Assembly (NCBI RefSeq): GCF_041260155.1
Contig: NC_091931.1
Span: forward strand, 17,993,166-18,057,165
DNA from: Ptychodera flava
Lineage: Eukaryota > Hemichordata > Enteropneusta > Ptychoderidae
DNA: 64,000 nucleotides
Direction: 5' to 3'
In this document: in pieces, positions 14,873 through 23,800 of the stretch
How the letters are laid out: each line of letters opens with the position of its first letter
Numbering within the stretch: position 1 is the stretch's first letter
Translations under genes and position numbers: made by a program
The notes under the pieces: generated by a model
The model's database searches: none
Told to the model about the DNA's origin: nothing
What the model saw: the letters and a program-made list of their open reading frames with translations, nothing else

Positions 14873-17800
14873 TTCATCGCTTTTAGGTTTCCTCAGGTGG
14901 TGGAAAATATGAAGAACATATGTATGAACTGGATCTTACAAGTATAACAAGTAACTAACACAAAAAACTTTATTTTGTTAGACTAGATTGTGACACACAG
15001 TAGCATAGCTTCAATGTAGCAAAATTCATTTATCTTACGTTACAAATGCACAATAGCAATAATTACCTATAATTTCCAAAGCAGGATTTTTCCATTTGGT
15101 GTAGGGCTTCCACTTACAGGTAGGCAGACACAAGCTTAGTTGTGTAGGAAAAGAGTGGCAATCTTTACTAGGGTAACAGCATGCATCATCAGGGCCTACT
15201 AGTACAGTATTTCATAATGAAACCAATTTTGGGGATATTTCCTGTGAAAGTCATTCATCAGGGACAGGGAACAAAAGTCAGAGGTTATGGCAGCTATTTA
15301 AATTGGCTTTTTGATCATTTTGTCTTCGCAGACAGATTGATAGCGATGTCATTTCCATCCACCGGTGGAAGGCGAAACCCAATATCAGAAGTGGCACACA
15401 TCCTGAATACCAAATACCCAAGTCACTACAAAGTCTACAATTTGTGCAGTAAGTGTGATCTGTCTGTCACGTCACATCACATCACATCACATCACATTTC
15501 TACAGCTTCTTTCTTCCAGCAAGTGTTTCTGCTTCCCCTCACCAAAATCAACAATGCGACTTAAAAGTGACTTTTGCAAGGAGACCTGCTCCAAGATCAG
15601 CTAAACTGACCAGTGCCATTTTTCATCATCCTGCCAATAAACAAACTGGCATCTGTTTTCAACAAACAGCTAATGATTTTGGTCAAACTTTGCTCAACTA
15701 TGATGTGCATTTCTGTTTTACAACCAGCACAAATGTGTTGAACACAAAAATATGAAGAACGTGTTGATTATATGCCATACCATCTAATCGTCTTCAGATA
15801 AACCTCAAGATGTGCATAGTGTCAACTTAATTTCAAATACAGTATACAGCAGAAAATAATTACAAATTAACACAGTGTTAAGTTGAGTAAAGTAAGAATA
15901 GAAATCTCATCACCATCGAGTGGTTTTGACAATTCTAGCTGTTTGTTTATGCCGCCAGAGTAAGGGAGAAATGTAGGGTAGTGCTTGACACTCTGGCTTG
16001 TGTGTAACTCAAATATATATTATTTTGTATCAAAACCTCATGTTATTTTATGTTTTCAACAACAATATGAGTATGAAGCATTAACTGCTTTCTTTCAGTC
16101 ATTCTTCAAATACTGTGTTAGCATTCTAGTCCTGTCAGAACAAAAAACAAAACAAGGGTAGACCCTATTTCATATCTTGTCAAAGTGTACTGTCAATTTG
16201 AGTGAAATACCTTGGCCATTATATAGTGTGTATTGAGCATATGATGTGAACACTTTCAGGGATTTTCTCTCAAACATGTAATTAATTTCCTTACTTTGTT
16301 ACAAGGTGAAGGTGGCTATGATATTTCATACTTCAGTTTTCAAGTTGAGAGGGTGTCCATTGAAGATCAAAATGTGCCGTCCTTAGAGTAAGTATACAAA
16401 TTGCTCTCGGATATAGAACTGACAGTAATATACATGTTATAGGAAATAATGTTATTATCATTTTGATCATTGTTATTATTTTAAAGTTTTTTGTGTTTCA
16501 AGTTTATGCACATTGTCAATGAAATCTTTTGAAATGGGATGTATCTGTTTCAACTGTATGTACAAAAGCTCATCAAATAGATGAGATTTGCTAAATGCTT
16601 TAGCCTAACTTTGGAGAGCATATTGATATCAGTTGTCAATGTATGACAATTAAGTTAACATGTTCTCCATATGATGAACCAGTTAAATGAGAACAAGAGT
16701 TTTTAGCTCCGCTGTCAGCGACGTGGAGCTTATCAAATAGGTTGATTTTCCATCGTCGTCCGTCGTCGTCATCCGTCAACAATTGCCTTCTCCTCTGAAA
16801 CCGCAAGCCTAATTGCTCTGAAATTTTATATGCAGTTCACTTGCGGTGACCTCACTTAAAGGCAGGGGGAGCCTATAAATACCCCCTATCTCCCTGGGCA
16901 TTCATAATCCAACATGAGTGGCACATGATAACAGCGTCAACGAATGCTCCCGAAAATCTGGAGCTTTCAACAACCATGGTGTAAATTAAAGTATTGTTCC
17001 AACATATTACGTTTGTGAATACTTGTGGCATCACCTTGTTGGCGAAATTCTCTCATTTTTACCATTTTAAGTTGATTTTTGATGCCAAAACTGCTTCGAT
17101 GCTGTGTTCGAAGCGTCCAACAAACAATAGATGAAAGCATTCAAACAGCTGCCAATCACGAGGGGACGCGCAAAGGTGCAAAACGATCAAACATTTGTTG
17201 TGTACATCCGATCGATTACGATGTCAACAATGAATAAACGACTCTTAGAACTGAGCAAAATACTTGACCAACGGTTACTGAACACGAGTCTCAGATGAGT
17301 TCAGACACAAACGGACTATTTCATGGTTTCAAGCAGATTGCCTCTCCCTGTATGTTTGTTGATCTGTGTACCTCTAGGCCTATGAATGGGTGACGTGTAT
17401 GTTGACCTGAAGTACGATATTTTACGATAGATCTCTTTTGGAAGTATGTTGTCGCCTAGCCGATGCCGTGTGTTCCCGGCGTTATACGGCCTCCCACCAC
17501 AGCTCTGCTGATTGCCATGGACAAAACCGGCAACATGCGGATCCAATTCGGACGGAACACGAAAAACTACTTTTCGAACTGTTTTCGGCCAAAATCAACT
17601 CGATTCCGATCTATGCAGCCAACCCAAATCACTCAACCGCTCACAGACCCATGCAGTGGACGGCCATTGGATACGTTCACGCCACGATTATACAGGTGCC
17701 CATGAGCTGCATTATTTTCTGTCGGGTCGGGGCGATGAAACTAAATCGCGATTGCTTCATCTCTGTCAGATTTGACCAAAACAAGACACTTGACATAGAT

Positions 17801-20800: not shown

Positions 20801-23800
20801 AGGGCAATTTTTGCCATTTTGGTCAAAAATGTGTATTTCCAAAACGACTAATCTGATAGCTGTGAAATTTGGTCTACAGGTTCTATAGATGAACTAAATT
20901 TGATCTTTTGAAATTATGATGAAATCTGCAATTTTTGTTTTTTGGGGCAATTTTGCCATTTTTGGTCAGAAAATTTTATTCTCAAAAAACTACTCATCAA
21001 ATATCTTTGGTTGACATGTTCATAGGGATGATCCGATAAGTATGATGAAATCTTCAATTGTGTATTTTTGCAGCTATTTTAGCCACTTTTTTCTGGTCAC
21101 TGCATTGAGCTATCAAAGATTTCCACCTTCTCATCAACATGTGTCAAAAATAGTTATTCACTACATTAACACAGCAGAGCTATATCGGCCGCTAGGTCGC
21201 TTGTATATTTCAAGAGATAGATGGCTTTGCTTCTAATGACAGTTTGTTATCTATAAATAATGCCAGTTTTACCTGATTTGTGTTGTTTTTTCTCATCTTA
21301 CTCTTAGAGAAATGCTGAAATTCTGTGAAGATGTAAATGAGTGGTTGTCATCAGATGAAGAGAATGTAGCTGTTCTACACTGCAATGCAGGAAAAGGTAC
21401 TAAGTCATTGTAGCGTACATTTCATTTGCACTGTACATTTCTGTTGTATTGTACTTTTCATTTGGGAGAGAAAAGAGTGACCGTCACGTGACCCCTTTAG
21501 TTCTTTTTGTTCCGTACATGCTATTATGTAGAAGAGTATTTGATTTAAAATCCTGTTTCTGCTCTATCAAACTTTGTAGTATTCCCTTGAATGTACAAAA
21601 CGGTTCAGTAGGAAAGGGATGCTAATTTGACTATAAAAATATCCTCCTCCATTAGACATGTAATACATTTAATGCAAAGTTTTTGTCTTTTTAGTATGCT
21701 AGCTTAACTTTTTCTGTTAATGCATAAAGTCCATCATTGTGCAGGAGTCTGCATGCATTATTGTGTATACATGTGCTAGCATACACACCTCAATGTATAA
21801 ATAAATGATATATTCAGTGATGACCACATTGCCAGCAAGTTAAAAAATGTATCCTGCTACTGAAGTCTAGAAAAAGTGATTTTCTGAGCAGCTCCAACTT
21901 ATAAAGTCATTATTGGTTAACAAGTCTCTTGTTCAAGATTTTTTTAAAATTTTCTTCTTCGAGACTTACATGTATTTTGATTTGTCACTTTAAAAGAAAT
22001 GTAAAAAGTTAAAATATTTGATCCTGTTTCAAACACACTGAAGGAAAAAATTTACAGTTGCCATTTTTATTGGGTATTCAGGTAGGACAGGAATGATGAT
22101 GTCATCATTGTTGGTGTACTACAAACTATACAACCAATACAAGGTGAGTGTCAGTACATTGTGTAATGAGAATTACACTAGTGCTGTGTTTATGTGGATT
22201 TTTTAATGTCAAGTTCATTAATTGCATGATACTAGAAGTGTTCTGAATAGTAATGACATCTACATGTACGGTTTTCTTTTTGATACGATGGTCAGAATGA
22301 AGTTGAAATTTCAGACATTGAACACAGTGAAAAACCAACACGGGTAGACACCGCCTATATAACGTGTATAGTACAGATATATGCTTTTTTTGACCAAGGC
22401 TATACAGAGAAAAGGACGCCCTTTCAAGTCCTTGAGTCTTGTGACTTTGATATTCAGCTGGAATAATAGTAAAAACACCAGCGTTTACAGTTCTGGACAA
22501 AACTTTTTAAACGTACCATTGTTTTGTTTAAAAATCCAAAATTTTCAAAGACATTTGTATCTATTCACATTAATTGATAGTTTCTTGTCTCATGCTTATG
22601 TGTTTTCAAAATTGATCACTAAAGGTAGCATACATGTACCTCAAAAGTGAAAGAACTAGACTTTGGCTCTAACTTTCCTCAAGGAATCTTTCAACCATTC
22701 TCTTTCAAAATTGAGAATAAAAATTCAAGGTCACCATGCAAATTTTGACATTAGAGAAACAAATTACCCATTGATTACTGATATTTTAAATTCAAATTGG
22801 CCACCATCCCTTAGACAGTGACAATTTTTCTTACACCAAGAGCTTTAAAATGAGCCCCCACAAGTGGTAGGTCAGAAAAGAATAGTAAAAATTTGAGAGT
22901 CCGATTGTCTGTCCCGGAGGAGAATTCTACCATAGACATATAGAGTCAACAAAGAGGGAGTAATCCATATGTGTACACTCATGGAGACAATGTGTATAGA
23001 GTGAAGGTGTACATGTATGTAAAACATGGTTGTATGAATGTGTGACCTTGATAACCCTTTTGCTTATAGTTCTTTAGTGCCTTCATTTGTATTATTGCAT
23101 GAAACCTGGAAAATCACACCAATTTTTCTCTTGGATCATGAGTCTGCAACCGTTTCACGCAAACTGAAGGCATGTCTCAGAAATGAAATCAGAATGAAAG
23201 CCATACAAGCGAGAGTTGTTAGGAATTGTAGTGAAATGCAGGAATTGTATTGAAAATCGGTTATTTTGTCATTTATTTTCAGGAATATCTACTGAACTTC
23301 ATTGGTGATGCCAAAAGTGACCTGTTCAAGTACCCAGCTGTTGAAACTCCCAGCCAGGTAAAGGCTTTTCAGAAACTTTATACACCGTGATATTTTGGGG
23401 ACAAAACCTGTAAGCGAACAAATGTCTGTCACCTTACAACCCAATGAAATGATGCAGTAGTAGATCATGTTGGTTTGACCTGCCACTGAAGTGAAGCAAC
23501 TGACATAGTCTGTCCGATATCAAGGATTTTGAATATCAATGGGGTATTTGTCAGTAAAAAGGTTCTGTGTACGCTGTCTGAAATCATGTTATCCTTACGT
23601 CACTGAGTACCAATTCAGTACAAGCTTTGAAGAAGACAAATCAGTGAATACCTGTCCTGACTTGGAAAGGTCCTTGTTATTTGTCAGTGGAGATAAGAAA
23701 AATGACAGTCATTCAATGTGAATGTATGAAAGACTGAGATGCTATGACCTTGTGATTGCAGTTTTAAGGTGTATATAAACCTCTTCAGGTCTGCTAAAAT

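What the first reader, a model, noticed from the sequence alone, without database searches (positions are those of the whole stretch)
16306..21396. VSP active-site pocket lacks two of the three basic residues that define PTEN-type substrate recognition
The P-loop reads HCNAGKGRTG where PTEN has HCKAGKGRTG and Ciona VSP HCKGGKGRTG, so the Lys125 equivalent is Asn349. The WPD-equivalent loop reads IEDQNVP instead of the usual DDHNVP, so the His93 equivalent is Gln317. The catalytic Cys348, Arg354, Asp316 and the Lys128 equivalent (Lys352) are kept. In PTEN, His93, Lys125 and Lys128 form the basic pocket that contacts inositol phosphates. Losing two while keeping the catalytic core suggests a changed phosphoinositide preference rather than a dead enzyme.
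Basis: partly seen in the sequence, partly recalled or inferred. Interest (0 to 1): 0.75.

Follow-up and report, generated by a model that had tools for sequence, protein, structure and literature searches.

The report
Acorn-worm voltage-sensing phosphatase, lipid-binding parts rewritten
An acorn worm carries a voltage-sensing enzyme that keeps its voltage sensor and catalytic core but has changed many of the parts its relatives use to grip membrane lipids, so it probably no longer works as the standard voltage-driven lipid phosphatase.

Summary
The gene is the TPTE2-like voltage-sensing phosphatase (VSP) of the hemichordate Ptychodera flava; my 15-exon, 561-aa model equals the NCBI protein. 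Gln317 and Asn349 stand where 182 of 183 other listed VSPs have His and Lys (one is gapped): a singleton, not a visible clade trait.

Of 76 columns invariant in 48 diverse VSPs this protein breaks 19; the next worst breaks 2 of 78. Broken: linker NKRR, pocket His/Lys/Gly, gating-loop Arg-Arg, C2 Tyr522. The hydrophobic spine is deleted and the gating loop 3 residues shorter, in none of 183 others. Kept: S4 charges, 9 of 9 catalytic-signature residues, C2.

Identity to echinoderm VSPs: voltage sensor above all 173 other VSPs, linker and phosphatase below all 173.

Most likely lipid docking and voltage-to-catalysis coupling have been dismantled, rather than phosphoinositide preference merely altered. 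Whether the core acts on another substrate is open. Paired changes at neighbouring sites (H332 to Gln, Y522 to His) hint at a rebuilt pocket. No activity was or could be tested.

The parts
8995..9281 (+). Coding exon 1: N-terminal cytoplasmic region, predicted disordered
   Evidence: Model; identical to NCBI P0016; pLDDT under 50 for aa 1-86
9865..9912 (+). Coding exon 2: pre-S1
   Evidence: GT-AG borders
10346..10507 (+). Coding exon 3: S1-S2 of the voltage sensor (D122 = Ciona D129, F154 = F161)
11188..11304 (+). Coding exon 4: S3 (D178 = Ciona D186)
13367..13457 (+). Coding exon 5: S4, charges K205, R211, R214, R220 kept (F217 at the variable Ciona R229 site)
14887..14950 (+). Coding exon 6: sensor-phosphatase linker; Ciona N251-K252-R253-R254 read G239-G240-G241-K242
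   Evidence: 183 of 183 others NKRR; net charge of the stretch 0 against +3 to +6 in 183 others
15332..15448 (+). Coding exon 7: start of phosphatase domain; FPSTGGR---RNP lacks the hydrophobic spine (Ciona S283-L284-F285)
   Evidence: 0 of 183 others have the deletion
16306..16387 (+). Coding exon 8: WPD-like loop IEDQNVP; catalytic Asp316, Gln317 (Ciona H332, PTEN H93)
21308..21396 (+). Coding exon 9: P-loop first part HCNAGKG; Cys348, Asn349 (PTEN K125), Ala350 (Ciona G365), Lys352
22082..22143 (+). Coding exon 10: P-loop end, catalytic Arg354, Thr355
23283..23357 (+). Coding exon 11: gating (TI) loop; R397-R398 read A383-K384, loop 3 residues shorter, D386 (D400) and E394 (E411) kept
24193..24298 (+). 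Coding exon 12: end of phosphatase domain, start of C2
25248..25345 (+). Coding exon 13: C2 domain
26144..26239 (+). Coding exon 14: C2 domain
26961..27152 (+). Coding exon 15: C2 end and stop; H505 at Ciona Y522, L536/S538 at K553/K555

Best explanation
This is the Ptychodera flava orthologue of the ambulacrarian VSP. It still has a charged S4 voltage sensor and the catalytic Asp/Cys/Arg core, but the surfaces by which VSPs bind phosphoinositides and membrane, and by which the sensor switches the enzyme on, have been largely dismantled: basic linker, hydrophobic spine, pocket His/Lys, gating-loop Arg397, C2 Tyr522 and C2 lysines. Most likely mechanism (inferred): depolarisation still moves S4, but the movement is not passed to catalysis in the Ciona manner and the protein does not deplete PI(4,5)P2 or PI(3,4,5)P3 on depolarisation. 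The remaining core, with a changed P-loop entrance (N349, A350, Q317/H505, shorter gating loop), acts, if at all, slowly or on substrates other than polyphosphoinositides. Shown: the gene, the residues, their uniqueness among the VSPs listed, and the uneven divergence of the domains. Inferred: every statement about activity.
For: Breaks 19 of 76 columns invariant in 48 representatives; the next worst breaks 2 of 78. Of 17 invariant columns in linker, pocket, gating loop and Y522, 13 are broken against 6 of 59 elsewhere (hypergeometric p 3e-7, set named after I had seen the breaks). Spine deletion and shorter gating loop in 0 of 183 others. C2 K553 and K555 lost; K in 178 and 173 of 183 others. 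Identity to 8 echinoderms: voltage sensor 0.40, above all 173 others; linker 0.33 and phosphatase 0.48, below all 173; C2 0.39, with 43 of 173 lower. End branch 8.4 times the median in the phosphatase, 3.2 in the sensor, 2.2 in C2 (ratios). Literature: K252Q/R253Q completely decouple the sensor (earlier work as cited) and spine mutants L284Q/F285Q have low voltage-dependent activity (PMC6298786); K252C abolished activity (earlier work as cited in PMC3726396); G365A attenuates VSP activity (PMC6182344); neutralising four C2 lysines shifts activation to higher voltage (PMC4389355 abstract). Precedent for a sensor without enzyme activity: salamander Hn-VSP (PMC4187576).
Against: All 9 catalytic-signature residues are kept (chance of that if 19 of 76 were hit at random, 0.063), which argues for retained chemistry. 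Several changes are mild (R245K, R254K, R398K), and D400, E411 and K558 are kept. Y522A and G365A alone do not abolish Ciona VSP activity. Net charge of the wider pocket is 0, but 9 of 182 others are also at or below 0. Divergence is not confined to the docking surface: the phosphatase outside WPD loop, P-loop and gating loop is also the lowest of 173 (0.47; their minimum 0.49), C2 521-557 is lower than all but one, and the sensor itself has a long branch. Compensating contacts cannot be excluded.
Confidence: 0.57

Rival explanations
1. Repurposed enzyme: the catalytic core is active on phosphoprotein or soluble phosphate substrates, tethered to a voltage sensor; the Q317/H505 swap and N349/A350 re-shape the pocket.
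For: Catalytic set 9 of 9 kept; H332 and Y522 are within 4 A in Ciona VSP and both changed here, His to Gln and Tyr to His; Asn directly after the catalytic Cys occurs in DUSP19, HCNAGVSR, listed with pSer/pThr/pTyr substrates (PMC8799702 table).
Against: No profile shift towards protein phosphatases: 42 of 46 scanned VSPs, this one included, match Y_phosphatase at E 0.01 or better. Deleting the linker abolished Ciona VSP activity even on water-soluble substrates (earlier work as cited in PMC3726396). No substrate is known.
Confidence: 0.25
2. One reading: still a voltage-driven phosphoinositide phosphatase, with a changed preference among phosphoinositides (for instance fewer phosphates on the ring).
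For: Catalytic core, K352, D400, E411 and C2 fold kept; Ala at the Ciona G365 site is the PTEN state.
Against: Loss of linker K252/R253, spine, R397 and C2 lysines removes lipid and coupling contacts that any phosphoinositide substrate would share (inference).
Confidence: 0.13
3. Relaxed or decaying gene: the phosphatase half drifts because the animal no longer needs it.
For: Long branch, most of all in the phosphatase; phosphatase positions outside the three active-site loops are also the least conserved of 173; P0016 has one member sequence and only ncbi/uniref as sources, so no transcript-derived entry is clustered with it.
Against: Complete 561-codon frame over 15 exons with GT-AG introns; the length changes are whole codons; sensor and most of C2 not unusually diverged from echinoderms; phosphatase segments 291-312 and 399-417 ordinary.
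Confidence: 0.1
4. Sequencing, assembly or gene-model artefact.
For: Only one sequence of the gene was seen; the identical NCBI protein may be from the same data.
Against: Each change sits in an uninterrupted codon in a clean exon, and many separate changes over several exons would have to be wrong.
Confidence: 0.03

Closest known systems
Ci-VSP, the Ciona voltage-sensing phosphatase (PDB 3awf/3v0d/4g7v)
   Different: Lacks NKRR linker, hydrophobic spine, H332, K364, G365, R397, Y522 and K553/K555; gating loop 3 residues shorter.
Echinoderm VSPs (Lytechinus, Amphiura and others)
   Same: Closest orthologues; the sensor+C2 tree joins them with this protein, SH-aLRT 97.3.
   Different: The eight echinoderm VSPs used keep the linker, spine, pocket, gating-loop and Y522 residues that are changed here; the C2 lysines vary among them.
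PTEN
   Different: PTEN has His93 and Lys125 and no voltage sensor; the P-loop block here is not unusually PTEN-like (rank 8 of 183).
VSPs reported inactive: human TPTE (hVSP2) and salamander Hn-VSP
   Same: VSP relatives reported without phosphatase activity (PMC4322731 passage; PMC4187576 abstract and one section); Hn-VSP shows that a working sensor can outlive the enzyme.
   Different: Hn-VSP is inactive through a truncated C2. Here C2 and the catalytic residues are present and the docking surface is changed. A 2026 paper reports activity for mouse TPTE (PMC13039310 passages).

Membership tests
Voltage-sensing phosphatase (VSP/TPTE), by descent | Voltage sensor followed by PTEN-like phosphatase and C2 | tested here: met
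   Predicted model matches Ciona sensor and phosphatase-C2 structures; PTEN_C2 above its cut-off, Ion_trans just below (22.3 against 25)
Voltage-sensing phosphatase (VSP/TPTE), by descent | S4 charges and counter-charges (Ciona R217, R223, R226, R232; D129, D164, D186) | tested here: met
   K205, R211, R214, R220; D122, E157, D178
Voltage-sensing phosphatase (VSP/TPTE), by descent | HCX5R(T/S) and WPD-loop Asp | tested here: met
   HCNAGKGRT and D316
Voltage-driven phosphoinositide phosphatase (works like Ci-VSP) | Basic linker K252/R253 for coupling | tested here: not met
   G240, G241; K and R in 183 of 183 others
Voltage-driven phosphoinositide phosphatase (works like Ci-VSP) | Hydrophobic spine L284/F285 | tested here: not met
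   3-residue deletion at Ciona 283-285
Voltage-driven phosphoinositide phosphatase (works like Ci-VSP) | Basic pocket His332, Lys364, Lys367 | tested here: not met
   Q317, N349; only K352 kept; a His stands at the nearby Y522 site instead
Voltage-driven phosphoinositide phosphatase (works like Ci-VSP) | Depolarisation-dependent phosphoinositide turnover | not testable with these tools
   Needs electrophysiology or biochemistry
Catalytically dead pseudophosphatase (by sequence) | Loss of catalytic Cys, Arg or Asp | tested here: not met
   C348, R354, D316 kept

The most novel reading that the evidence does not exclude
A voltage sensor joined to a phosphatase that has switched substrate class: the phosphoinositide pocket and membrane-docking surface were replaced, including a His moved from the WPD loop to the facing C2 loop, so that the enzyme acts on proteins or soluble phosphates in an acorn worm in which no other VSP was detected.
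Probability: 0.2. Interest if true: 0.8.

Novelty: new variant of a known kind. Interest (0 to 1): 0.55.

Why it matters
[quoted passage not shown] this protein breaks both. It is a natural multi-site mutant of residues studied one by one in Ciona, so it can test whether coupling, lipid binding and catalysis are separable in evolution. It also shows a voltage sensor that stays closer to its echinoderm relatives than its enzyme half does, which bears on the open question of what VSPs do in invertebrates.

Tried and rejected
1) A clade trait: not seen; none of 183 other listed VSPs has Gln or Asn there. Limit: only the best 120 of 1125 and of 1264 hits are listed, so lower-ranked VSPs were not examined, and the 15 short hits were not counted.

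2) A second, canonical VSP in this animal: not found in the window nor among the listed hits of searches with this protein and with the Lytechinus VSP, where I would expect an ordinary hemichordate VSP to rank near the echinoderms. Not a proof of absence. No whole genome is held.

3) Gene conversion from PTEN: a 45-residue block around the P-loop scores higher with PTEN (47 bits) than with VSP structures (30-40), unlike the Lytechinus and Nematostella blocks; but over 41 aligned residues 6 of 182 other VSPs score higher against PTEN and 1 ties. Dropped.

4) Profile shift to protein-tyrosine phosphatases: a higher Y_phosphatase score than Lytechinus, and Ciona unlisted, but 42 of 46 scanned VSPs match. 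Dropped.

5) Weak S4: Phe at the Ciona R229 site is not odd; 28 of 183 others have Arg there and 3 have Phe.

6) Overall pocket charge as an outlier: not so; 9 of 182 others are at or below 0.

7) Divergence limited to the docking surface: not so clean; the rest of the phosphatase is also the least conserved of 173.

8) Print search: a query for voltage-sensing phosphatase with hemichordate gave one paper, on proton channels; one for any two of Ptychodera, Saccoglossus, TPTE and two VSP spellings listed 20 of 169 papers, by title and abstract none on a hemichordate VSP.
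Full report
What is there. The window holds a complete VSP gene on the + strand: 15 coding exons, 8995-27152, GT-AG introns, 561 codons and a stop. The translation equals NCBI's 'TPTE2-like' protein of Ptychodera flava, P0016, a hemichordate. tblastn with seven VSPs shows no second VSP-like gene in the window.

Gln317 (CAA) and Asn349 (AAT) are real, each one base from a codon of the family residue. I aligned P0016 with 183 other VSP/TPTE proteins, all that two searches listed (120 rows each, of 1125 and 1264 hits). 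Ciona numbers below are those of the 570-aa record P0026 plus 6, which puts C363, G365, K252 and Y522 where the papers have them. His332 is His in 182 and Lys364 is Lys in 182 of 183 others, one protein being gapped at both. So the pair does not mark a clade that can be seen here.

How much more has changed. Taking 48 representatives under 75% identity, P0016 breaks 19 of the 76 columns invariant among them: N251, K252, R253, R254, D261, Y266, F295, H300, H332, K364, G365, F394, R397, R398, T399, Q408, G409, F511, Y522. In leave-one-out the worst of the other representatives breaks 2 of 78. Two deletions come on top: Ciona S283-L284-F285, the hydrophobic spine, and three residues of the gating loop; all 183 others have full length at both. 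The linker stretch has net charge 0 against +3 to +6 in the 183 others. In C2, K553 and K555 become Leu and Ser. There is also a one-residue insertion before the gating loop, relative to the 19 others printed.

What is kept. D331, H362, C363, G366, K367, G368, R369, T370, G371 are all kept (9 of 9; chance 0.063 given 19 of 76 broken), as are D400, E411 (Glu in 158 of 183), S4 charges K205/R211/R214/R220 and sensor residues D129, F161, D186. The structure predicted from 46 of the 184 proteins (mean pLDDT 76, N-terminus and linker poor) matches Ciona phosphatase-C2 and sensor structures.

Where it sits and how it diverged. With 33 named proteins, sensor plus C2 place it with eight echinoderms (SH-aLRT 97.3); sensor alone 87.5 and C2 alone 87.1 do so less firmly; the phosphatase domain alone does not, but does not reject it (AU p 0.18). 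The whole-protein tree of 39 proteins leaves it unresolved among bilaterians, with an end branch of 1.44 against a median of 0.35. Against those echinoderms the sensor is more similar (0.40) than any of 173 other VSPs; linker (0.33) and phosphatase (0.48) are less similar than all 173; C2 is 0.39 with 43 of 173 lower. I left out a near-duplicate Lytechinus and a partial Apostichopus sequence. Within the phosphatase half, linker end, WPD loop, P-loop, 359-379 and gating loop are the lowest of 173, while 291-312 and 399-417 are ordinary. Against a purely local change: the phosphatase outside WPD loop, P-loop and gating loop is also the lowest of 173 (0.47, their minimum 0.49), 260-290 and C2 521-557 are near the bottom, and S3 is middling. 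End branches are 0.84 in the phosphatase (median 0.10), 1.03 in the sensor (0.32) and 0.67 in C2 (0.31), so the whole protein is fast and the phosphatase most of all for its domain.

Reading it with the literature. In Ciona VSP, K252Q/R253Q decouple sensor from enzyme (earlier work as cited), and spine mutants L284Q/F285Q have low voltage-dependent activity (PMC6298786, passages). K252 and R253 contact D400/E402 of the gating loop in simulations, and K252C abolishes activity (the latter as cited; PMC3726396, passages). G365A attenuates activity (PMC6182344, passages and one section). Y522 lines the active site, H332 lies within 4 A of it, and Y522 mutants shift rather than abolish activity (PMC4389355, abstract and passages). 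K125, K128 and H93 matter for PTEN's PIP3 specificity (PMC7316235, passage citing earlier work). Of the elements named there, K252, R253, L284/F285, G365, Y522, H332 and K364 are altered here; K367, D400 and E411 are kept. I infer that the usual voltage-driven phosphoinositide phosphatase is improbable.

What remains open. Kept catalytic residues speak for some chemistry. Two neighbouring pocket positions both changed, His to Gln and Tyr to His, which may be a swap: the number of His in the pocket stretches is the same as in the others. That fits a rebuilt pocket, but it is one pair and could be chance. Asn in place of the Lys after the catalytic Cys is found in a protein phosphatase, DUSP19 (PMC8799702 table), yet no profile evidence favours a protein phosphatase. 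I therefore rank loss of phosphoinositide function first, substrate switch second, altered lipid preference third.

Limits. One sequence of the gene; no transcript seen; no coordinates of the model to measure; hits below rank 120 unseen; the docking set of 17 columns was named after the broken columns were known; many of the 173-183 comparison proteins are vertebrate, so ranks count relatives many times.

Noticed in passing
window 16388-21307: The 4.9-kb intron between the WPD-loop and P-loop exons holds 8 copies of a 55-nt AT-rich element (20133-21099).
   Followed up: no
window 13622-14344: Nested inverted repeats (157-nt arms at 92%, 44-nt arms at 100%) in the intron after S4, which look like a MITE or fold-back element.
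   Followed up: no
window 38861-39340, - strand: ORF matching mitochondrial carriers (Mito_carr, E 1.5e-25).
   Followed up: partly
window 56920-57354, - strand: Weak WD-repeat match below the curated cut-offs, possibly an exon of a WD40 gene.
   Followed up: partly
window 8995-9281: The N-terminal region of about 95 residues looks rich in Asp/Glu by eye and is predicted disordered (pLDDT about 33).
   Followed up: no
(no window position): No named hemichordate VSP other than P0016 is among the 120 listed hits of either full-length search; Saccoglossus may lack the gene, have a poor model, or rank lower.
   Followed up: partly
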